From positions 257,211 to 321,210 of the forward strand of contig NZ_CP042913.1 of the NCBI RefSeq assembly GCF_008065115.1: a stretch of DNA of 64,000 nucleotides, given 5' to 3'. The notes under the pieces were generated by a model that ran no database searches, was not told the origin of the DNA, and saw nothing but the letters and a program-made list of their open reading frames with translations. Below are positions 28,507 to 40,047 of this stretch, in pieces. The DNA is from Bythopirellula goksoeyrii (lineage in GTDB: Bacteria > Planctomycetota > Planctomycetia > Pirellulales > Lacipirellulaceae). A program made the translations under genes and the position numbers. Numbering within the stretch: the first letter of the stretch is position 1; every line of letters starts with the position of its first letter.

Positions 28507-30114
28507 ATGACCGCTCCAAAAATTTTCAATTGGGTTGCCACCAGTCTACTCATTACGATGAGTTCCGTCGTGAGTCAGGCACAGCCACTTCACCACGAGT
28601 TAGTGCTTGAGGGTCCCAACCCGACGCCACTCTTGATGGACAATCCCAATCACGACTTACAGTTTTTTGCACCGGTCGATTTCGATTTTGAGTGTCGGCC
28701 GATCCGCCAGCAATGTGGTTATTTCTTCAGCTTTGAAAAGTCATTTTGGGCAGCAACAGGTGAGCGAGTCACTGTCGGCGATCCTAACGAAGTCGTATTC
28801 TCCGAGCTGATCTTTGGTGGCAACCTTTCTCCCTTTTCGATCGGCACCCCTCCTCCTCAATACATTATCAACAATAGCATCCAAGACGCTCCTCCTAATG
28901 GCCGCGACTTTGGTCACGGAGATCGCTATGAATTCGGCTATACCCAAGGAGGCAATGGCTGGATGATTGGTGTGATGGACGGTCCGGAAATCGCTGGCCG
29001 ACAGATCTTCGGCTTCAACAGCCTTACTATTCCCAACCAATTGCCGCTCATAGAGAATTTGCACGACCCCAATTTTGATTTCCCAAACTTTGTCTTTGGT
29101 TCTAATATCTTTGGGGAACCCGGATCGGGAAGCTTCGACATAGCCACCTCCCGGAACGGATTCGGCAGCGTCCATGTGAACTTCCGAACTCCGGATGGAT
29201 TTCTCACTGGTTTTGTAGACTACGCGATTAATGGACCGAACAACGAACTAGGTCCGACAGTGGCTGGACCGGGGCGCGCAGTTCAAGCAGTGGTTGTTGG
29301 AACAGGCATTGACGGCAATCCAGAAGTATTACTCGTCGACCTTACAAGTGGTGCCGATGGACTTCCAGACAATCTAAACGGCAACATTGTTGGCGGTTTC
29401 TTCTTTGTTGTGAACGCCGACGATGAAGTGATTGGCACCGGTGTGGACTACGAAGACTTGCACACTTTTAACGTTGCCTTCGAGAGGTTTGAAGTTCGCA
29501 ACCTTACCGAGACCGATGGTATTGAACTAATGAAAACTGTTACGCTCGATAATCGCCACTTGCCAGTCAAACGTCAGGGAGAGTTTGTCGAGTTGGGTGT
29601 GGGAGTTCGCTACCTGAGACTCAACGACGTATTCTACTTCAATGGTAGTGGAGGAATCTTGGGCCGCACTTATGCAACCACTGGCGCAGAGAACCAGATT
29701 GTCGGACCACAGGTTCGTGGAAGATGGTCGAAGCAAAGGGGACGTTGGAACTTCGGACTCGATGGTAGATTTATGTTCGGCTACAACGTCCAGGACCAAA
29801 CTCAGATAGGTGCCATTGGCGAAGACCTTTCTCCGGGTGCAGTCAACTCACCGATCTATGCCCAACCGCATGCGGTTTCCTATGCTCGGCAGCAACAGAA
29901 CTTCTCTCCGGTGGCAGAAATCCGAGCAGACTGCAGCTATCAGATTACCAGCTCGATCGCGGCCAAGCTTGGATACACTGGAATCTTTGTGGAAAACATC
30001 ACGCGTGCTTCACAGACGGTCGACTGGTATATCCCAGACCTTGGTATTCTGAAAGGTGGCAACAATGAAATCTATGTCAATGGCGTGGACTTCGGGTTCG
30101 AAGCCGTCTACTAG
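28507..30114 (+). CDS. BBP7-family outer membrane beta-barrel protein
   Basis: The 535-residue product has a signal peptide ('ATSLLITMSSVVSQAQ'), then the family hallmark 'YFFSFEKSFWAATGERVTVG'. Most of the chain alternates short hydrophobic and polar strands with Gly and aromatic residues, as in outer-membrane barrels; the end 'NGVDFGFEAVY' has the terminal aromatic residue typical of barrel strands. BBP7 proteins are largely restricted to planctomycetes and unassigned in function. A strong intrinsic terminator follows 30 bases after the stop. Confidence 0.85.
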   Translation: MTAPKIFNWVATSLLITMSSVVSQAQPLHHELVLEGPNPTPLLMDNPNHDLQFFAPVDFDFECRPIRQQCGYFFSFEKSFWAATGERVTVGDPNEVVFSELIFGGNLSPFSIGTPPPQYIINNSIQDAPPNGRDFGHGDRYEFGYTQGGNGWMIGVMDGPEIAGRQIFGFNSLTIPNQLPLIENLHDPNFDFPNFVFGSNIFGEPGSGSFDIATSRNGFGSVHVNFRTPDGFLTGFVDYAINGPNNELGPTVAGPGRAVQAVVVGTGIDGNPEVLLVDLTSGADGLPDNLNGNIVGGFFFVVNADDEVIGTGVDYEDLHTFNVAFERFEVRNLTETDGIELMKTVTLDNRHLPVKRQGEFVELGVGVRYLRLNDVFYFNGSGGILGRTYATTGAENQIVGPQVRGRWSKQRGRWNFGLDGRFMFGYNVQDQTQIGAIGEDLSPGAVNSPIYAQPHAVSYARQQQNFSPVAEIRADCSYQITSSIAAKLGYTGIFVENITRASQTVDWYIPDLGILKGGNNEIYVNGVDFGFEAVY

Positions 30115-30410: not shown

Positions 30411-31126
30411 TTTGGCAATTAGACCTTTCTCTATCTGTGATTATTATCTCTCCAATCGAAATAATGAGCAAGTGGATCGGATGATTTTGCAGCTTTTCAG
30501 CTAAGTGCCATAGATGGTGAACCCATATGCTAGGAGGAATAACCTCACCGACGGCAGAAGATAGGGACTATGTCGGTCAACGAAGAGTCGAAAACTTTGT
30601 CGTCTCTTCTTGAGAATCGCAATATGCGTATACTAGGAGACTGACTTATTTTAAGCCCAAATCCTCTCCAAGGATCGAGTTGCTGGCAATTTGCACTCTG
30701 GTTCGGAGAGCCGCAATGTCGATTAATAAGAGGTTCCCGTAGCTTATTGCGGTTAATATCAGCTGAAAGTTTGCGGAGTTTCAAATTACTTCCTAGAGGG
30801 GGTGCATCCAGCATGATTGGCATTTACAATGGTATTCGAATAATCGCTGGTTTTCGCCGCCTCATGCAGCCGAGGATGCCTCGCATTGTAGGGTCGACAA
30901 GAGTGTTGTGGCGACCACAGCATTGCTTGCATTGGTGTGGATGTCCGCAAGATCCTCTAGTGGCATGTCTGCCGTCCATTAGCAAGCCGAGAGATGGCCG
31001 CTATTAGTATGGGGCCGTTGAAGTGGGTCCCTCCTAGCATGCGACGCTGCCGGTAAACCTGTAACAACGGACTCGATTGTTCGCATAGATGGATATGTGA
31101 CATTCGATAGTCCCGTTTGAGAATTG
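30411..31126. other. intergenic region, no supported gene
   Basis: About 700 bases. An AGGAGG sequence near 30532 has no start codon at a useful distance. Open frames here have poor coding character. The promoter of the large lipid-type synthase should be in the right part. Confidence 0.45.
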
Positions 31127-34100
31127 GTGTTAGTCGTGCATTTGGATCACTTGCCTGGTTCGTTTTTTGGCCCTTCCAACCTAGTTGAGTTGTTGCAGCA
31201 TCGTGCCCTGCATCAAGGGGATGATGTTGGCTTTCGGTTTATTGTCGATGGCGAGCATGAGACTATCGAGTGGACCTATGCCGACCTCGATCGCAAAGCC
31301 CGCTCCATTGCCGTCTCGCTCCAATCCCTTGATCTCGAAGGCGAACGAGCGCTGCTTCTTTATCCTTCGGGGCTGGATTTCGTAGCGGCCTTTTTCGGTT
31401 GTCTCTATGCCGGCGTGACCGCCGTGCCTGCATATCCGCCGCGACGCAATCGCAACATGGCCCGCATCGACTCGATTGCCAATGATGCCGAAGCCAAAAT
31501 TGCACTGACAACCGTCGATGTGTTGGAACGTGTACAAACGATGATCGGTGATACGCCATCGTTGCAGCGAATTCGGTGGCGTGCTACTGATCAACTAGAC
31601 GACGAGTGGGCCAATAGTTGGCAGCGACCTGATGTGCACGGTGATACGCTTGCGTTCTTGCAGTACACATCGGGATCAACGGGCTCTCCCAAAGGAGTGA
31701 TGCTCTCACACGCCAATCTCATGCACAACTCGGCGATGATCGCCTACGCATTTGAGCATACCCGTTCGGGTAGCGGAGTCTTCTGGCTCCCCCTCTATCA
31801 CGACATGGGTCTCATCGGCGGGATTCTGCAACCGCTGCATATGGGCAGATCCAATACTTTGCTTTCGCCAACGCACTTCTTGCAAAAGCCGGTGCGCTGG
31901 CTGAAAGTCGTTTCACAAACTCGAGCCACTATCTCGGGTGGGCCTAATTTCGCCTATGACCTCTGTACGCAAAAGGTAACGGCTGAGCAAAAAGCGACAC
32001 TCGATCTGAGCCAGTGGACACTGGCTTTCAATGGCGCGGAACCGGTTCGGGCAGAAACTATCGAGCGTTTTACCGAGGCCTTCGCGGAATGCGGTTTTAG
32101 GCGAGAAGCGTTCTATCCTTGTTATGGACTGGCTGAGGCAACTTTGATCGTAACCGGAGGGTTCAAGCAGTCTCTCCCAGATGTCCGGGCATTCGATATT
32201 TCTGGTCTCGAGCAGAATGATGTCGTCGAAACCACCCCAGGTGCCGAGGGTTCTCGACTCCTTGTAGGCAGTGGCGGCAATCTACTTGACCAGCAGATCG
32301 TCATCACCGACCCGGAAACATTCGCCAATTTGGGTGACGGGAAGGTGGGCGAGATTTGGGTGTCGGGGCCTAGCGTGGCTGGAGGCTATTGGAAACGAGA
32401 CGACCTTTCCCGCGAGATCTTCCAGGCACGCCTGCAAGATGGGCGTGGTCCATTCCTGCGGACCGGAGACCTTGGATTCCTCCTCGAAGGTGAACTCTTC
32501 GTCACGGGGCGACTTAAAGACCTGATCATTATTCGGGGAGTCAATCATTATCCTCAGGACATCGAGCAAACAGTACAGTCCGCACACTCCGACGTGGTAC
32601 CAGGCGCTGGTGCGGCTGTCGTCACCGGCGAAGATGGTTCCGAACAACTCGTCATTGTTCAAGAAGTCGTCCGCCGTCGCGATCTCCCCTTCTCTGAGAT
32701 AACTGAAGCGATTCGCAAACGGGTCGCCCTAGTACATGAGTTAAATGTTTCTGCTGTTGTTCTGATCAAAGCGAGCAGTATCCCCAAGACCTCTAGCGGC
32801 AAGATACAGCGTCATGCCTGTCGCGATGGATTCCTGGCAGGCACTTTGGCTGCCGTTGCCAAGTGGTCGAGTGAAGAAGGTGATGAAGTCGTCGCTCCTT
32901 CACTCAGGCGCAAGGAGAGAATGACTGAGGCCACCTGGGTCGAAGAAGGTGATACCACCGACACCGTTGAAGATACAACCTCGACAACAACAAGCTCAGT
33001 TGATGCCAACGGCGTTGCCTTGCCGGAAGATGTACCTTCTTCCATGCGCCCTCCAACGAAGGTCCCGGTCGGTCAAACGGCCGAAATCGCAGATGTGGTG
33101 TATGCGAAGGTCCGCGCAATCGGTCGCGAACGAGTAGGAGAACTCAATTGGGATACGAACATCTTGGAATTGGGGCTCGATTCTCTCGAGCGAATGGAGA
33201 TCGTGGCCTCGCTGGAAGAGGCCTTTGGCGGCCGATTCCCTGAGCAAATCCTTCCCTCGATGGAAACGTGTGGAGAGGTTGTCGAGGCCATCCAGCGGTA
33301 TATGGGAGGTACTGCCAAGCGACGCAGTGTACGACCAGACCACTACGAGGTTCACCCCGAGGACTATGACTTTGCTGAGAGTGCCGACTATCTCCGCCTG
33401 CAACAAAATCTTCGTATTGCGCAACGTTCGGGGCTGCCTATCCCGTTCTTTAATGTTCATGAGGGAATCACGAACGATCGAGCAGTGATCGGTGGCAAAG
33501 AATACATTAATTTCTGCAGTTACAATTACTTGGGCATGTCGGGAGATCCCACGGTGACCCAAGCCGTGCAAGAAGCTGTCGCCAAGTTTGGCACCAGTGT
33601 CTCTGCCAGCCGAGTGGTATCAGGACAGAAAACGATTCACGTTCAACTCGAACGGGCAATTGCCGACTTTATCGGCACGGAAGATTCAATTGTTTTCGTG
33701 GGCGGGCACTCTACCAACGAGACGACCATCGGACATCTGTTCGGCGCCGGGGACATGGTTCTTCACGATTCTCTGTCGCACAACAGCATCTTGCAGGGAG
33801 CGATGCTTTCGGGGGCTCGACGACGACCCTTCCCCCACAACGACTGGAAAGCATGCGATGAGATCCTCACGGAACTCCGACATGAGTACCACAAGGTATT
33901 GATCGTTGTAGAAGGGGTCTACAGTATGGATGGGGACTATCCTGATGTACCGAAGTTTGTGGAAGTCAAGCAGCGTCACAAGGCGTACTTGATGGTCGAT
34001 GAGGCCCACTCGATGGGCACCATGGGTCCGCACGGTCGGGGCATGTCGGAGCATTTCGAGGTTGACCCTAGGGATGTCGATATCTGGATGGGGACACTTA

Positions 34101-34624
34101 GTAAATCTTTTGGCAGTTGCGGCGGGTACATCGCTGGTAGTAAAGAAATCGTCGAGTACCTCAAATACACTGCCCCCGGGTTTGTGTATAGCGTTGGCTT
34201 GAGCCCCCCCAATGCTGCAGCGGCATTGGCTTCGCTCCAGCTACTGCAAGAGGAACCCGAGCGTGTCGCTCAACTTGGCAAGAACTCTCGTCTCTTCTTG
34301 CAACTGGCAAAGGAAGCCAAACTTGATACCGGACTAAGCAACAACACCCCGGTCGTGCCCGTCATCACAGGGAATTCCGAAAATGCGCTGCGGCTATCGC
34401 ATGGCTTGTTTGAGCGAGGAATTAACGTGCAGCCAATTCTTTATCCCGCAGTAGAAGAGAGTGCCGCGCGATTGCGGTTTTTCATCACCAGCACTCACAC
34501 TGAAGAACAGATCAGGCAGACCGTAGCAGCCGTCTCCGAGGAGCTTGCCAAATTTGATCCAGTTTACGAACGCTTGCTTCGAGCTACTGCCTCTCCGACT
34601 GGTGAATCTGCTTTGTTTCGATAG
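31127..34624 (+). CDS. fatty-acyl-AMP ligase - acyl carrier - alpha-oxoamine synthase fusion
   Basis: One chain of about 1165 residues holds a whole biosynthetic unit. Residues 10-580: acyl-AMP ligase ('YTSGSTGSPKGVMLSHANLM' near 180, 'YGLAEATLIVTGG', 'RTGDLGFLLEGELFVTGRLK'). Residues about 650-725: acyl carrier domain with phosphopantetheine Ser686 in 'LGLDSLERME'. Residues 770-1150: PLP enzyme of the alpha-oxoamine synthase family (serine palmitoyltransferase, AONS, KBL), with 'LMVDEAHSMGTMGPHGRGMS' and PLP Lys993 in 'GTLSKSFGSCGG'. The expected reaction is activation of a fatty acid, loading on the carrier and decarboxylating condensation with an amino acid, giving a sphingoid-base-like 3-keto amine. 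The start is non-ATG: GTG 31127 is chosen, TTG 31124 and GTG 31136 are alternatives. Confidence 0.88.
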   Translation: MLVVHLDHLPGSFFGPSNLVELLQHRALHQGDDVGFRFIVDGEHETIEWTYADLDRKARSIAVSLQSLDLEGERALLLYPSGLDFVAAFFGCLYAGVTAVPAYPPRRNRNMARIDSIANDAEAKIALTTVDVLERVQTMIGDTPSLQRIRWRATDQLDDEWANSWQRPDVHGDTLAFLQYTSGSTGSPKGVMLSHANLMHNSAMIAYAFEHTRSGSGVFWLPLYHDMGLIGGILQPLHMGRSNTLLSPTHFLQKPVRWLKVVSQTRATISGGPNFAYDLCTQKVTAEQKATLDLSQWTLAFNGAEPVRAETIERFTEAFAECGFRREAFYPCYGLAEATLIVTGGFKQSLPDVRAFDISGLEQNDVVETTPGAEGSRLLVGSGGNLLDQQIVITDPETFANLGDGKVGEIWVSGPSVAGGYWKRDDLSREIFQARLQDGRGPFLRTGDLGFLLEGELFVTGRLKDLIIIRGVNHYPQDIEQTVQSAHSDVVPGAGAAVVTGEDGSEQLVIVQEVVRRRDLPFSEITEAIRKRVALVHELNVSAVVLIKASSIPKTSSGKIQRHACRDGFLAGTLAAVAKWSSEEGDEVVAPSLRRKERMTEATWVEEGDTTDTVEDTTSTTTSSVDANGVALPEDVPSSMRPPTKVPVGQTAEIADVVYAKVRAIGRERVGELNWDTNILELGLDSLERMEIVASLEEAFGGRFPEQILPSMETCGEVVEAIQRYMGGTAKRRSVRPDHYEVHPEDYDFAESADYLRLQQNLRIAQRSGLPIPFFNVHEGITNDRAVIGGKEYINFCSYNYLGMSGDPTVTQAVQEAVAKFGTSVSASRVVSGQKTIHVQLERAIADFIGTEDSIVFVGGHSTNETTIGHLFGAGDMVLHDSLSHNSILQGAMLSGARRRPFPHNDWKACDEILTELRHEYHKVLIVVEGVYSMDGDYPDVPKFVEVKQRHKAYLMVDEAHSMGTMGPHGRGMSEHFEVDPRDVDIWMGTLSKSFGSCGGYIAGSKEIVEYLKYTAPGFVYSVGLSPPNAAAALASLQLLQEEPERVAQLGKNSRLFLQLAKEAKLDTGLSNNTPVVPVITGNSENALRLSHGLFERGINVQPILYPAVEESAARLRFFITSTHTEEQIRQTVAAVSEELAKFDPVYERLLRATASPTGESALFR

Positions 34625-34962: not shown

Positions 34963-35235
34963 ATGTCCCAAGCAATCGTTGATCCCGCGGAGTTACGCAG
35001 GTTCGCCCATCAACTCAACCAATTCAACGTTGAACTAGAAGATCGCCTCAACACACTTGCCAGTCAGTTGCACACGTTGAACAGCAGTTGGCGAGACCAG
35101 GAACATCGCAAATTTGCTGAAGAGTTTGAGCATCATCTCAAGCTGATCGCGCGCTCAATTGAAGCATCTCGTGAGTACGCACCATTTCTGATGCGCAAGG
35201 CCGAACGGATTGAAGAGTATCTACAGCAGAAGTAG
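34963..35235 (+). CDS. WXG100-like small helical protein
   Basis: The 90-residue all-helical protein has two predicted helices with a turn at S42-W43-R44-D45, the position where WXG100 (ESAT-6-like) proteins have W-x-G. Length, central Trp and helical character fit the superfamily; the Gly of W-x-G is replaced by Asp. The segment S-W-R-D-x4-K-F-x-E is shared with the 74-residue protein at 35885. WXG100 proteins are secreted substrates or chaperone-like partners of type VII secretion ATPases. First gene of a four-gene run that ends with an FtsK/SpoIIIE ATPase. GAGG lies nine bases upstream of the ATG. Confidence 0.75.
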   Translation: MSQAIVDPAELRRFAHQLNQFNVELEDRLNTLASQLHTLNSSWRDQEHRKFAEEFEHHLKLIARSIEASREYAPFLMRKAERIEEYLQQK

Positions 35236-35312
35236 AAAGGAAATGACCAATCGAATGAATCGGAGTATGCCCTTCTCACTACTGACCATTGACAATTGGA
35301 CATTGAATTGCC

Positions 35313-35882
35313 ATGTCTGAATCAGCGAACATTACTTCAGTAGAGGCAATCGAAAGGTTTCGGGCAGCGCTGGCGAAATTCGAAAAGCGAACGCAAGGAG
35401 CACTTGACAATCTGTCGTCGGAGCTCCAACGCGCAACAACTTGGCTGGAACATGATTGCCCCCACTATTGGAAGGTACAAGAAAACAACGCTGCCGATGC
35501 AGTTCATCAAGCCAAGCTCGACGTCGAGCGGTGTCTAATCTTCGCAGTTACTGACGAACGACCTGCCTGCCGCGAAGAACGCGCTGCCCTTCAGGTTGCC
35601 AAGAATCGACTCACCTACTGTCATGACAAAAAGGGGCTCGTCAAACACTGGCAAAGCGTAATGCATCACGAAATGTTTGAGTACAGCGGACGCATCGGAC
35701 ATTTACGCAGAATCCTGGAAACAGAACTTCCAGCGGCACGCGCCAAATTGCAACTCATAATGCGGCGTATCGAAGGATACCAGATCGAACGTCCCCCCGA
35801 TTATCAAGAACCTCTACAAAGCGACGGGAAATCCAATGGGGAAAACCTGCCCGCTAATAAGTCACCTGCGCCGGAAAGTTAA
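35313..35882 (+). CDS. helical protein of unknown function in FtsK/WXG100-like run
   Basis: The 189-residue protein is almost entirely helical and has no signal peptide or membrane segment. The first 130 residues are coiled-coil-like with many charged residues ('FRAALAKFEKRTQGALDNLS', 'HQAKLDVERC'), and it ends with a disordered tail rich in Pro, Ser and Asn. I do not recognise a family. The next gene begins two bases after its stop, so the two are surely co-translated. By position it may be a substrate, adaptor or structural part of the same system. Confidence 0.75.
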   Translation: MSESANITSVEAIERFRAALAKFEKRTQGALDNLSSELQRATTWLEHDCPHYWKVQENNAADAVHQAKLDVERCLIFAVTDERPACREERAALQVAKNRLTYCHDKKGLVKHWQSVMHHEMFEYSGRIGHLRRILETELPAARAKLQLIMRRIEGYQIERPPDYQEPLQSDGKSNGENLPANKSPAPES

Positions 35883-35884
35883 CT

Positions 35885-36109
35885 ATGCGACCGTGGGATC
35901 TCGATACTAGTTCGGCGCAGATTCGTCGCGCGATGGAGGATCTCCAACGTGCCTGGCAAGAAGTCAGCGAATCGTGGAACGACGGCGTGAGTCAAAAGTT
36001 CTGTGAGCAACACTTGGAACCTCTGATTCCAGTAGTAAAACAAACATTGGATTCCATTTCGCGAATGCAGCAGCTGACAAGCAAAATGCAACGCGAATGC
36101 GAAAGTTAA
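35885..36109 (+). CDS. second WXG100-like small helical protein
   Basis: The 74-residue protein has S30-W31-N32-D33-G34 between two helices, and K-F-x-E eight residues on, matching the 90-residue neighbour ('SWNDGVSQKFCEQ' against 'SWRDQEHRKFAEE'). It is shorter than the usual 95-100 residues of WXG100 proteins. Its start follows the preceding stop by two bases and its end overlaps the FtsK-like gene by 13 bases, so expression of the run is tightly linked. Confidence 0.7.
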   Translation: MRPWDLDTSSAQIRRAMEDLQRAWQEVSESWNDGVSQKFCEQHLEPLIPVVKQTLDSISRMQQLTSKMQRECES

Positions 36110-39100
36110 CGGGGCGCCTAAGCGTCGCACATGTGACCAAACAACGTCTTTCAACTCGACGCCAATTGGAACTGATGCAACAACTGCAACAGTTGGCGAA
36201 TACGCGCGCTGCGGAAGAAGCTCGCTTGGCTGCATCTCTTTCAGAAATCCTTGCTGCAGCCGAAAAAGACCACACTCTCAATGCTAATCGGTTGACCAAG
36301 ACTTTTACAGAGCGTCGCCGGGATCTTGAAAACGAGTTTTCTAATGCGAAACTCGCAGTTGGACAGCAGTATCGCGAAACGAAAGCAGAACTTACTAGCA
36401 AGTCTGAATCAGAGATCAATCGAATCGAAGTCGACTACAAACAGCTACTGCTTGGGATTGAAAGAACCCACAAGGAAAAACAATGGGAAGCCATGGCTGT
36501 GTTCGACGCCTCCAAGGACAAGCCTCAACAGTTGCTTGATCAGGCAGGCAAACGCATCCAGTCACGTAAGTCTCAAGTTGATTCTCTCTTAAGAGATGCT
36601 GATACCCTGCTCACTATGCGGAGACTCGACAAACATATCCGCGAGGTGGAAGAGAATACACTAGACTCTTCAGTTGAAACGGTGCCGGTTGGCGGAGGGG
36701 AAGATCGGCAGCAGGCAACTCTCGCTGAACTGCATCGTGCAGTACTCGCCCTACAAGCTCAGAAGTTACCCTCTCTACTTTTTGAAGAGAACCGATTTAT
36801 TATTTGGGGCTTGCTGGCTACCCTTATACTATTTGTTCCTGCATTGATAGTTTCGAGTTCGCTGTTGATTAGTGCCCTTGTGGCTCCTGTCTTGGGAGCC
36901 CTTGCCACTGGGGTTCTCTATCTCATCTTGGGGCCACGGGCAAAGCGTGCCACACTTGATGAATACGATCGTATCCATTCTTTGGTTACGGACTCACGCC
37001 GACATGAAATCCAGGCACGCCAAGAAGCTCAATTACTCAGTCGTCAAGAAGCCGATGCGATTACAACTCGGAAACAAGAAGGATTAGACGCTGCCCAGGT
37101 GGCTCGTCAGCAGGCAGTTGCAGAAGGTGAGGCCAGAAAACAAAAGTTACTCGTAGAGTCACAAAGCCGTTTCAAGGGAAAGCTGGCTGAACTGGAGGCG
37201 CAATTCCAGTCTACACAGGCTGCGGCAATGGAAAAGTATCCGCCACTTCTGGACCAATTGGCGGAGGAGCGACAGATCGCCTGGCAAGAGAACGAAGCGT
37301 CGTTTGAAAAGCGCACTTCAGATGCCCAAAGTGAACATGATTCCTCCTGGCAAGCAATGGCCGATCAGTGGTTCACTGGTTTCCAGCAAATCGCCGACGA
37401 GCTTGATCAGATGCAGGCGAGTTGCGACCAGTTCTTTCCTAATTGGTCAACTATCGATTGGGAGGATTGGCAACGCCCCGACCGCTTGCCACCCGTTATT
37501 TCGTTCGGCAAGTGCCTGCTCCCATTGCAAGCAGTCAAGAATGGCTTATCGGAAGATGCCCGGCTGGTTCCTGAACGAACTGAGCTCAACCTCCCCGCCT
37601 GGATGTCGTTTGCGGAAAGCCCTCGACTGATGATCACTGCCGATGGGGCAGGGCGGCGAGTCGCGGTCGAAGCATTGCAGTTATTGATGCTTCGCTTTCT
37701 CACGGCAGCACCTGCAGGCAAACTACGGTTTACGATTTGCGATCCGGCCGGGCTGGGAGAAAACTTTGCAACCTTTATGCATTTGGCTGACTATGACGAG
37801 CAACTCGTCGGCAAGCGCATCTTAACTGATTCTCGCCAGATCGATGAGCGACTCTCCCTGTTGTCAGATCACATGGAAAAGGTGTTCCAGAAATACTTGC
37901 GGAACGAGTTCGAATCGATCCACGAATACAACGCTCATGCAGGGGAGGTCGCTGAACCGTTTCATGTGATCGTCGTGGCCAATTTTCCGGCAGGGTTGAG
38001 CGATGCTTCGATCCGCAAACTGAAAACGATAGCCGCCACGGGGCCTCGCTGCGGCGTCTACACAATTCTGAGTGCCGATTCGTCACTTAAGCTCCCGGCG
38101 GACATTTCCATGGAGGAAATGCTCGCTGACGCGGTTCACCTTGATTGGGTGGATGACCGCCTGCGATGGCGGTATCCTTTGTTTGAGAAACTCACTCTTG
38201 AGTTGGACAAGCTTCCGCCGAAAGAGAAACTCAACGAGATTCTTCGGCACGCCGGTGAAGAGTCCCATACCGCCAGTCGAGTCGAAGTTCCTTTCGAGGT
38301 AGTCGCTCCCAGCCCTGAGCAAGTCTGGGTGGGCAACGCTGCCCAAGAACTGGTGGTTCCCATCGGCCGAGCAGGCGCCAACGAGCTGCAATCATTGCGG
38401 CTTGGAAAAGGGACGGCTCAACATGCCCTGATTTCTGGCAAGACAGGTTCTGGCAAAAGTACTTTGTTGCATGCCCTGGTGACCAATTTGGCGCTGCATT
38501 ACAGTCCACGGGAAGTAGAGTTCTACTTGGTCGACTTTAAGAAGGGCGTCGAGTTCAAGACGTACGCAACACACGAATTACCTCATGCCAGGGTAATCGC
38601 GATCGAAAGTGAGCGGGAATTTGGGGTCAGCGTTCTCGAACGACTTGACGACGAATTGCGAAGTCGAGGAGAACGCTTTCGCGAACTCGGCGTGCAAGAC
38701 CTAGCAGGTTTCCGCCGTGAGTCGGGGGAAGACCTCTCGCGGCTCTTATTGGTGATTGACGAGTTTCAGGAGTTGTTTGTTTCCGATGACAAGCTTGCAC
38801 AGGATGCCGCTTTGCTGCTGGACCGTCTCGTACGGCAGGGGCGAGCCTTTGGAATCCATGTTCTGCTCGGCTCACAAACCTTGGCGGGGGCATACTCCCT
38901 GGCGCGTAGCACGATCGGCCAGATGGCGGTCCGCATCGCCCTGGAGTGCAGCGAAGCCGATGCACACTTGATACTCAGCGACGACAACTCTGCGGCTCGA
39001 CTCTTGAGCCGTCCAGGTGAGGCGATCTACAACGACCAAAACGGCATGGTCGAAGGAAACCATTTGTTCCAGGTGGTGTGGCTGGCAGACAGCCAACGTC

Positions 39101-40047
39101 AACAGTACCTGGCCGATATACGTCAACGACAACTCGACGCAGGAATCGCAACCGTACCGGCAATCGTATTTGAAGGAAATGTCCCAGCCAATCCGCTGTC
39201 GAACGAGCAATTGGTCGACTTGATAACCTCCGATTCCGATGGGCCCGTTGTGGAGCCTAAGATTTGGCTGGGATCCGCTGTGAGAATTGAACCCCCCACT
39301 CAGTTGACATTCCGTCGGCAAGGTGGCAATCACCTCTTGATCGTCGGGCAAGATGAACCGTTGGCACTCGGTATTCTTTCCACGGCTGTAGCGACATTGG
39401 CGTCCCAACAACAGGGAGATGAATCAAAGATCACCATTTTAGATGGCATGCGGAGCGAATCTCTTGATCGGGGCGCTTGGCAAAAAGTAATTGACGCGAT
39501 GCCCGATCGAGTTCGTATTTGTCCCGTCCGCGAGACGTCTCATGTGATTTCGCAATTAGCCGATGAAGTATCTCGGCGGAACTCAGACCCCGTTCAGGAA
39601 TACGAGCCTCAGTTTTTAGTGATCTACGACCTGGCCCAATTCCGAGACCTGCGCGTGACCGAAGAAGAGTTCACCTTTGCGGTCAGCTCGTCGAACAACG
39701 GCAAACCGCCGGCAACGGATAAACAATTTCGTGAAATCTTGCGAGAAGGGCCTGCCGTTGGAATCCACCTCTTGATTTGGTGCGATTCGCACAACAGCCT
39801 TGCTCGGATTCTCGACCGGATTGCCTTACGGGAAGTGGACTATCGAGTCGCTCTACAGATGAGTCCTGTCGATTCAACGAGCCTAATCGATTCGCCAGCC
39901 GCAGGACGCTTGGGCGAACATCGTGCCATATTCTATCGCGACGACTTAGGCACGAGTGTCAAATTCCGGCCCTATGGCAGACCTAGCGACGAGTGGCTCG
40001 CTTGGCTTGCCGAGCAATCTGCGGTACGCAGAGTAGGGCGACCCTAA
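36097..40047 (+). CDS. membrane-anchored FtsK/SpoIIIE-type ATPase (EccC-like, divergent)
   Basis: The 1316-residue protein starts with about 220 residues of coiled coil, two transmembrane segments (about 233-279, 'LLATLILFVPALIVSSSLLI' then 'VAPVLGALATGVLYLILG'), more coiled coil to about 430, then three ATPase-like regions. The first (about 500-690) lacks a Walker motif. The second has Walker A GKTGSGKST (781-789) and Walker B LLLVIDEF (Asp888, Glu889). The third (about 1070-1310) has 'LLIVGQDEPLALG' without GK[S/T]. One competent ATPase of three, the membrane anchor and the WXG100-like neighbours recall EccC/EssC of type VII secretion; the long coiled coils are unlike them. A role in protein export or in a related DNA-moving task is inference. 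Confidence 0.85.
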   Translation: MRKLTGRLSVAHVTKQRLSTRRQLELMQQLQQLANTRAAEEARLAASLSEILAAAEKDHTLNANRLTKTFTERRRDLENEFSNAKLAVGQQYRETKAELTSKSESEINRIEVDYKQLLLGIERTHKEKQWEAMAVFDASKDKPQQLLDQAGKRIQSRKSQVDSLLRDADTLLTMRRLDKHIREVEENTLDSSVETVPVGGGEDRQQATLAELHRAVLALQAQKLPSLLFEENRFIIWGLLATLILFVPALIVSSSLLISALVAPVLGALATGVLYLILGPRAKRATLDEYDRIHSLVTDSRRHEIQARQEAQLLSRQEADAITTRKQEGLDAAQVARQQAVAEGEARKQKLLVESQSRFKGKLAELEAQFQSTQAAAMEKYPPLLDQLAEERQIAWQENEASFEKRTSDAQSEHDSSWQAMADQWFTGFQQIADELDQMQASCDQFFPNWSTIDWEDWQRPDRLPPVISFGKCLLPLQAVKNGLSEDARLVPERTELNLPAWMSFAESPRLMITADGAGRRVAVEALQLLMLRFLTAAPAGKLRFTICDPAGLGENFATFMHLADYDEQLVGKRILTDSRQIDERLSLLSDHMEKVFQKYLRNEFESIHEYNAHAGEVAEPFHVIVVANFPAGLSDASIRKLKTIAATGPRCGVYTILSADSSLKLPADISMEEMLADAVHLDWVDDRLRWRYPLFEKLTLELDKLPPKEKLNEILRHAGEESHTASRVEVPFEVVAPSPEQVWVGNAAQELVVPIGRAGANELQSLRLGKGTAQHALISGKTGSGKSTLLHALVTNLALHYSPREVEFYLVDFKKGVEFKTYATHELPHARVIAIESEREFGVSVLERLDDELRSRGERFRELGVQDLAGFRRESGEDLSRLLLVIDEFQELFVSDDKLAQDAALLLDRLVRQGRAFGIHVLLGSQTLAGAYSLARSTIGQMAVRIALECSEADAHLILSDDNSAARLLSRPGEAIYNDQNGMVEGNHLFQVVWLADSQRQQYLADIRQRQLDAGIATVPAIVFEGNVPANPLSNEQLVDLITSDSDGPVVEPKIWLGSAVRIEPPTQLTFRRQGGNHLLIVGQDEPLALGILSTAVATLASQQQGDESKITILDGMRSESLDRGAWQKVIDAMPDRVRICPVRETSHVISQLADEVSRRNSDPVQEYEPQFLVIYDLAQFRDLRVTEEEFTFAVSSSNNGKPPATDKQFREILREGPAVGIHLLIWCDSHNSLARILDRIALREVDYRVALQMSPVDSTSLIDSPAAGRLGEHRAIFYRDDLGTSVKFRPYGRPSDEWLAWLAEQSAVRRVGRP

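What the first reader, a model, noticed from the sequence alone, without database searches (positions are those of the whole stretch)
34963..40047. Minimal type VII-like cassette: three small helical proteins and a divergent FtsK/SpoIIIE ATPase
Four co-oriented genes with short gaps and overlaps (2 bases, then a 13-base overlap) encode two WXG100-like proteins, a 189-residue helical protein and a 1316-residue ATPase with two membrane segments, long coiled coils and one intact Walker A/B site of three ATPase-like regions. EccC/EssC and ESAT-6-like proteins are known for type VII secretion, but no EccB, EccD, EccE, EsaA, EssA or mycosin gene is beside it. It could be a stand-alone export or envelope system, so far undescribed for this lineage.
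Basis: partly seen in the sequence, partly recalled or inferred. Interest (0 to 1): 0.75.

Follow-up and report, generated by a model that had tools for sequence, protein, structure and literature searches.

The report
Conserved four-gene, single-ATPase export-like system
This is a compact set of four genes, resembling a stripped-down bacterial protein-export machine, that planctomycete bacteria keep or lose as a set even when the four genes are scattered around the chromosome, which points to a working but uncharacterised cell-envelope device.

Summary
Observation confirmed: four co-directional genes, A (90 aa), B (189), C (74), D (1316). New here is the opposite of mobile. In a sample of 392 planctomycete genomes, 57 match all four genes, 329 none, 6 a part (five of these at most 86% complete). 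In several genomes the genes lie hundreds of kb apart yet are kept; in G163 all four are unlinked. A is identical to a relative's although 82% of synonymous sites differ. Some relatives in other phyla carry toxin-like cargo; none is recognised here. Best reading: a vertically inherited, toxin-less T7SS-like system at the cell envelope. Export is inferred, not shown.

The parts
34963..35235 (+). gene A: 90-aa WXG100 protein, turn motif WRD
   Evidence: Pfam WXG100 E 6.8e-8; closest solved structure HP0062 of Helicobacter pylori, E 2.3e-6; 24 invariant columns in 23 sequences
35089..35097 (+). W-R-D turn motif of A (residues 43-45)
   Evidence: W43, R44, D45 invariant in 23 of 23 aligned sequences
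35313..35882 (+). gene B: 189-aa protein predicted as one long helical hairpin with a variable tail
   Evidence: AlphaFold2 model, helices 8-76 and 87-159, mean pLDDT 88.6; no Pfam family
35541..35570 (+). loop between the two helices of B (residues 77-86)
   Evidence: model; P84 and C86 within it nearly invariant in 23 sequences
35885..36109 (+). gene C: 74-aa small protein with W-x-D motif
   Evidence: W31 and D33 invariant in 21 of 21; profile match to A at that motif, weak
35975..35983 (+). W-N-D motif of C (residues 31-33)
   Evidence: alignment A4
36097..40047 (+). gene D: 1316-aa EccC/EssC-like ATPase; start uncertain (GTG at 36133 possible)
   Evidence: FtsK_SpoIIIE E 8.8e-31; EssC and EccCa models E about 3e-32, far below their curated cut-offs; EccC in PDB E 9.9e-37
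36790..36936 (+). hydrophobic stretch of D (residues 232-280), probably two membrane segments
   Evidence: hydropathy; 53 of 68 long relatives show two separate stretches by the same crude rule, 13 one, 1 none, 1 three or more
37459..38301 (+). first, degenerate ATPase-like domain of D (about residues 455-735)
   Evidence: secondary structure of the model and its alignment with EccC from the first ATPase on (4nh0); no Walker A
38437..38460 (+). Walker A of the middle domain, GKTGSGKS (residues 781-788)
   Evidence: seven of the eight residues invariant and K782 nearly so in 48 aligned sequences
38746..38763 (+). Walker B of the middle domain, LLVIDE (residues 884-889)
   Evidence: D888 and E889 (434 and 435 of the fragment) invariant in 48 sequences
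39214..40014 (+). third, degenerate ATPase-like domain of D (about residues 1040-1306)
   Evidence: model; aligned with EccC/EssC ATPases 2 and 3 together with the middle domain

Best explanation
A, B, C and D form one functional unit, a type VII-secretion-like system of the cell envelope that has become a stable part of planctomycete chromosomes and has lost (or never had) toxin cargo. D sits in the inner membrane by its hydrophobic stretch and works as an EccC/EssC-like motor with one active domain in the middle. A, C and the long hairpin of B pair through their helices, much as two small helical partners pair with an LXG domain or as PE pairs with PPE, and this complex is recognised by D and moved across, or assembled at, the inner membrane. 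The variable tail of B, or the Imm33-like domain that some B proteins carry, would be the part that differs between users. Shown here: protein kinship, domain build, gene order, co-retention without linkage, purifying selection. Inferred: complex formation, membrane transport, its direction and its substrate.
For: Co-occurrence in one 392-genome sample: D 62, A 60, B 59, C 61; all four 57, none 329, partial 6. Unlinked retention: in one-contig G163, D 234308, A 710884, C 1936053, B 2663562; G082, G209, G363 and G412 are also dispersed on one contig. Gene order A-B-C-D on one strand in 35 of 37 loci. T7SS kinship of D and A. Relatives on plasmids of other phyla: A-like proteins E 4.5e-24 to 3.1e-7 in four of five; the Helicobacter D-like protein aligns over 751 columns, E 2e-42; Helicobacter order A-like, WHH nuclease, SUKH immunity, 77 aa, D-like. 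B against the Rhodococcus 314-aa neighbour of a D relative: E 2.7e-6, next after 65 B proteins (E 2.6e-21 or better) and well ahead of the best unrelated background protein (E 0.053) among 1214. B is a confident hairpin. Two small partners of an LXG domain in T7SSb: PMC9600955 (passages).
Against: No secretion, localisation or expression data exist in what I read. For D's middle domain FtsK DNA motors score slightly above EssC/EccC (Z 30.9 against 29.2 and 28.6). The hairpin of B matches generic coiled coils only. B against the candidate cargo of Deinococcus, Caballeronia, R. pseudokoreensis and Helicobacter is not significant (E 0.038, 1.8, 170, not listed), and C against the 76-77-aa proteins of Caballeronia and Helicobacter is not significant. 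None of the five plasmid relatives of D has a strong membrane stretch (best windows 1.39-1.71 against 2.68 in D), though in two plasmids a neighbouring small protein has one. In G432 (98% complete) A was not found in two searches.
Confidence: 0.6

Rival explanations
1. It is still an antagonism system: B is the delivered effector with a toxin activity not yet recognised, or toxins with the same targeting domain lie elsewhere.
For: Relatives in other phyla carry toxin-like cargo in the cluster (WHH nuclease plus SUKH immunity; a 349-aa protein with a W-N-D helical start and an HELGH motif on contig MT836827.1). Five of five long B proteins that I gave to Pfam end in an Imm33-like domain, a family named after toxin immunity; at least one more long one (L108) was not tested.
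Against: Most B proteins that I saw are the hairpin plus a low-complexity tail (by eye); one significant B match in the genome; apart from two upstream genes of another kind no neighbour is widely shared in the clustering (neighbours were not annotated one by one); the strong conservation of A and the all-or-none inheritance do not look like an arms race.
Confidence: 0.15
2. D is a DNA translocase or another cytoplasmic FtsK/HerA-type motor (segregation, division, envelope-bound DNA handling), with A-C as accessory coiled coils.
For: The middle domain matches FtsK motors with the highest Z (30.9); planctomycetes divide unusually (abstract starts seen in the listing); the plasmid relatives of D lack a strong membrane stretch.
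Against: By sequence EccC is far ahead of FtsK (E 9.9e-37 against 2.3e-9); three fused domains with only one P-loop and no gamma domain; a separate FtsK_SpoIIIE protein with a far stronger match is in the genome; WXG100 partner.
Confidence: 0.15
3. It is a mobile T7SS-like island, as the 2012 footnote proposes.
For: PMC3482391 footnote 6; relatives do lie on plasmids.
Against: Genes at unlinked sites in several genomes yet kept together; one match per gene in nearly all carriers; two upstream genes conserved within the family (AMP-ligase fusion in 17 and a BBP7-type gene in 13 of 23 loci); no relative confirmed in viral contigs.
Confidence: 0.07

Closest known systems
'Mobile versions of T7SS' with solo WXG and a three-domain YueA-like ATPase (PMC3482391, Table 1 footnote 6)
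   [quoted passage not shown] solo WXG protein; planctomycetes named among the carriers.
   Different: Here chromosomal, co-inherited even when unlinked; two further fixed partners (B and C) not mentioned in the passages I saw; no toxin recognised.
T7SSa/T7SSb and the T7SSc-j variants (ESX, Ess/Yuk; PMC11217815, abstract and passages)
   Same: EccC/EssC-type ATPase plus WXG100 protein; small helical partners of a longer helical domain.
   Different: No YukD or YukC family found in the genome; active site in the middle domain; phylum outside Actinomycetota and Bacillota; no FHA domain found by Pfam.
HP0062 cluster of Helicobacter pylori (PMC3397514, passages)
   Same: A matches HP0062 (E 2.3e-6), which has a WRD turn and clusters with an FtsK/SpoIIIE protein.
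   Different: Different phylum; the H. pylori cluster itself was not examined here; a plasmid relative in another Helicobacter carries a nuclease cargo.
LXG toxin - Lap1 - Lap2 complexes (PMC9600955, passages)
   Same: One helical domain of similar size (180-200 aa) with two small helical partners.
   Different: B has no LXG match in Pfam and no toxin domain; here the ATPase is in the same gene cluster.

Membership tests
Type VII secretion system (T7SSa/b) | EccC/EssC-type membrane ATPase of several FtsK-like domains | tested here: met
   scores are far below the equivalog cut-offs
Type VII secretion system (T7SSa/b) | WXG100 protein encoded with it | tested here: met
   A, Pfam WXG100 over the cut-off
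Type VII secretion system (T7SSa/b) | ubiquitin-like EsaB/YukD and EssB/YukC (T7SSb) | tested here: not met
   no match in G000 (96% complete); the same searches ring in Bacillus subtilis
Type VII secretion system (T7SSa/b) | EccB (T7SSa) | tested here: inconclusive
   no match in G000, but none of the 14 control genomes rang either
Type VII secretion system (T7SSa/b) | EccD, EccE, EsaA, EssA, mycosin anywhere in the genome | not tested
   only YukD, YukC and EccB were searched for
Type VII secretion system (T7SSa/b) | secretion of the WXG100 protein that depends on the ATPase | not testable with these tools
   needs an experiment
Three-domain 'mobile T7SS' of PMC3482391 | three FtsK/HerA domains, only the middle one active | tested here: met
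   one Walker A, in the middle domain; 67 of 68 long relatives also have exactly one by pattern; three domains read from the model and its alignment to EccC
Three-domain 'mobile T7SS' of PMC3482391 | solo WXG protein | tested here: met
   A has no fused domain; one WXG100 match in the genome
Three-domain 'mobile T7SS' of PMC3482391 | mobile | tested here: not met
   unlinked genes co-retained; a gene tree was not made
LXG toxin with Lap1 and Lap2 | LXG domain followed by a toxin domain | tested here: not met
   no Pfam family in B
LXG toxin with Lap1 and Lap2 | helical domain that pairs with two small helical partners | tested here: inconclusive
   B is a hairpin by model and two small genes lie beside it; pairing not tested
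FtsK/SpoIIIE DNA translocase | C-terminal gamma DNA-reading domain | tested here: not met
   Pfam scan of D shows none

The most novel reading that the evidence does not exclude
Planctomycetes run a domesticated type VII-like machine of only four parts, with one working ATPase site, that serves the diderm cell envelope rather than warfare: its former effector slot (B) now holds a bare targeting hairpin, and the four genes are kept or lost together across the phylum even after scattering over the chromosome.
Probability: 0.45. Interest if true: 0.75.

Novelty: new variant of a known kind. Interest (0 to 1): 0.56.

Why it matters
T7SS is regarded as a Gram-positive and mycobacterial machine; a 2013 review that I saw in passages says it is not found in typical diderm-LPS bacteria (PMC3796261). 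A four-part, chromosomally fixed relative in another phylum would be a minimal system in which to ask what the ATPase and a WXG100 protein can do without the usual accessory subunits, and would show how a conflict system is turned into a housekeeping one.

Tried and rejected
Conserved neighbours beyond A-D: two upstream genes, only in the window's own family (AMP-ligase/carrier/aminotransferase fusion in 17 of 23 loci, BBP7-type gene in 13 of 23); downstream, an enolase-like gene in 6 loci (naive gene calling; identities of the two upstream genes and of enolase from the window, or by eye). Neighbours of the scattered genes looked varied, not annotated. Other B-domain proteins in the genome: none significant (second match E 0.089). 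Viral contigs: 122 pattern matches, none a relative by tblastn. Phage records: 57 match; of the 15 listed, all but MT836827.1 cover only 16-23% of D. Fold of B against PDB: 0 matches at E <= 0.001 and generic coiled coils by Z, so no family can be named; no WXG100 or LXG structure was seen in the rows shown, which excludes nothing. Profile matches A-B and A-C are suggestive only. PADLOC: for D only FtsK/HerA-type models. Paper searches: searches gave 0 papers; one search gave 3 (one seen in passages, two not opened); one search gave 1 and one search gave 2, not opened; one search held 1,520 of which 12 were listed, so it shows nothing by absence; one search listed 20 of 29 and led to the T7SS papers cited; one search gave 5 on HP0062, one seen in passages. 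A 2011 survey of WXG100 distribution (Sutcliffe) is recalled, not seen.

Rows set aside: 46 of 79 loci passed the automatic order test; 11 have D with upstream sequence but none of A, B, C in the locus; the other 22 are mostly cut by contig ends or failed ORF choice and were not resolved one by one. In one search, 4 of the 52 matching genomes have only weak matches (E 6.5e-16 or worse) and I do not count them as carriers. Alignments used a chosen part of what I had: A1 window plus 20 of 36 D, A2 window plus 22 of 36, A3 window plus 22 of 36, A4 window plus 20 of 36 (seven C ORFs with overlong starts excluded), A5 window plus 47 of 68, A6 window plus 50 of 53. The phylum searches used different limits (D 1e-30, A 1e-6, B 1e-4, C 1e-3) and scored only the best few first-look candidates per genome.
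Full report
What is there. A is a WXG100 protein by Pfam (E 6.8e-8), and its nearest solved relative is HP0062 of Helicobacter pylori (E 2.3e-6), a hairpin that dimerises, has WRD at the turn and clusters with an FtsK/SpoIIIE protein (PMC3397514, passages). C has no Pfam family over its cut-off, but W31 and D33 are invariant in 21 sequences. Profile comparison finds A and C alike only around this motif, weakly (E 3.5e-4, probability 37%). B has no family; a model made with 51 sequences is one long hairpin, helices 8-76 and 87-159, with lower confidence in the tail and the first residues. D has a 49-residue hydrophobic stretch and one Walker A/B pair. A model of residues 455-1316 made with 48 sequences (mean pLDDT 86.2) is ranked by Foldseek first with the EccC cytoplasmic part of Thermomonospora curvata (E 1.5e-33, but TM-score only 0.37 over the whole). 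The structural second look puts FtsK motors (Z 30.9 over 276 residues, one domain) a little above EssC and EccC (Z 29.2 and 28.6 over 491 and 498 residues, two domains; 28.4 over 730 residues for the three-domain EccC). By sequence EccC leads FtsK clearly.

Spread and order. In 59 genomes (the window's own and 58 relatives) 52 have a D match at 1e-10, 48 of them at 1e-41 or better. In 37 loci around D (L034-L070), 35 have A-B-C-D in this order on one strand; one is cut by a contig end inside D and still shows A-B-C (L038), and one has D alone (L050, genome G042), where A was later found on another contig. A is exactly 90 aa in 35 of 36. The 79 named loci include Pirellulales, Singulisphaera acidiphila, Gemmatales, Schlesneria and Phycisphaerales (record titles); 46 of 79 pass an automatic order test, and 11, among them the three Schlesneria loci, have D without A, B or C in the locus.

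All or none, linked or not. Profiles of D, A, B and C were each run over the same 392 genomes of the phylum: 62, 60, 59 and 61 genomes match. Combining the lists, 57 have all four, 329 none, 6 a part: G165 A and D, G275 C and D, G327 A, C and D, G352 A, B and C, G392 D only, G432 B, C and D. Five of these six are 61-86% complete; G432 is 98% complete and is a real or assembly exception. In families f15 and f21 both carriers and non-carriers occur, so the set seems to have been lost, or gained, more than once as a whole. In one-contig G163 the four genes lie at 234308 (D), 710884 (A), 1936053 (C) and 2663562 (B). In G082 and G412 A is apart, B and C are together and D is apart; in G209 and G363 A-B-C are together and D is apart. 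Genes that keep company without being neighbours are hard to explain except by joint function, and a mobile island does not explain them. Genomes of one phylum are not independent draws, so I give no p value, and I made no gene tree.

Selection. Against G004, A is 100% identical in protein with 82% of synonymous sites different; B, C and D are 78-81% identical.

Relatives elsewhere. tblastn of D against 72,556 plasmid records finds 217 with some match; of the 40 listed, four cover more than half of D. Five records, of Caballeronia, Helicobacter sp. NHP19-012, two Rhodococcus and Deinococcus, are the only ones that the Caballeronia and the Helicobacter ATPase find at 1e-20. Their A-like proteins are significant in four of five (E 4.5e-24, 1.4e-14, 2.6e-10, 3.1e-7; not in R. 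pseudokoreensis). In the Helicobacter plasmid the order is A-like, a protein with a helical start and a C-terminal WHH nuclease (PF14414, E 1.1e-11), a SUKH immunity protein (PF09346, E 1.6e-6), a 77-aa protein, then the D-like ATPase. So the place of B is taken there by cargo plus immunity; that the 77-aa protein is a C is not supported by sequence. B is similar to the 314-aa neighbour of the Rhodococcus AH-ZY2 ATPase (E 2.7e-6, against E 0.053 for the best unrelated of 1214 background proteins; profile comparison E 2e-5, probability 77%); Pfam and NCBIfam name no toxin in that protein. For the other candidate cargo proteins the similarity to B is not significant, and I do not claim it. C is similar to a 144-aa Deinococcus neighbour (E 3.2e-5). 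An unannotated contig filed as a phage (MT836827.1) has a D relative (441 bits, E 4.3e-135 in a nine-protein search) followed by a 349-aa protein with a W-N-D helical start and an HELGH motif; the motif is read by eye and Pfam names no peptidase there. [quoted passage not shown] the Helicobacter case would extend this.

Fused B proteins. I chose them because they were long; L108 (300 aa) was not tested, and another Phycisphaerales record (L137) has a short B of 184 aa.

What is known. Footnote 6 of Table 1 in PMC3482391 describes this ATPase type with solo WXG proteins in several lineages including planctomycetes and calls them mobile versions of T7SS. The kind is therefore in print in one sentence. 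My other searches did not bring up a paper on the planctomycete system, in a library that lacks most subscription journals and with several listed papers not opened. T7SSc-j are described for Gram-positive bacteria (PMC11217815, abstract and passages).

Mechanism. The best-supported picture is an inner-membrane D motor that recognises an A-B-C helical complex. The parallels are the LXG-Lap1-Lap2 complex of T7SSb (PMC9600955, passages) and EccC bound to a signal peptide (PDB title of 4n1a). Complex formation, transport and what the tail of B does are inference. No YukD or YukC protein was found in the genome; the EccB test is uninformative because no control rang, and EccD, EccE, EsaA, EssA and mycosin were not searched for. 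The alternatives, cryptic toxin delivery or DNA handling, are less likely but open.

Noticed in passing
31124-34624: Fused gene for AMP-binding ligase, phosphopantetheine carrier and class I/II aminotransferase, next to the cassette in 17 of 23 loci of the same family and in no other family examined.
   Followed up: partly
L186:9408-13810 (Helicobacter sp. NHP19-012 plasmid): WXG100-like protein, WHH nuclease cargo, SUKH immunity and an FtsK-like ATPase related to D in one cluster of a Campylobacterota plasmid.
   Followed up: partly
L191:584-9636 (MT836827.1): Unannotated contig filed as phage: ThiF protein, D-like ATPase of 1423 aa, a W-N-D helical protein with HELGH motif, and a recombinase-like gene (the last by eye).
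   Followed up: partly
L118:6530-7594, L131:6286-7356, L212:820-1950, L213:725-1798, L214:620-1759: B proteins with a C-terminal Imm33-like domain.
   Followed up: partly
L183:8555-18538 (Caballeronia plasmid): The D relative lies among two VWA proteins, a CARF protein, a PP2C phosphatase and a Ser/Thr kinase (as annotated); the Rhodococcus AH-ZY2 relative (L184) lies near TerD genes.
   Followed up: no
L037 and L038 (genome G013): Two cassettes in one genome, their D proteins 61% and 48% identical to the window's; 4% contamination is given for this genome, so the second may be foreign.
   Followed up: no
28507-30114: BBP7-type putative outer-membrane barrel gene two genes upstream of the cassette, conserved there in 13 of 23 loci of the family.
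   Followed up: no
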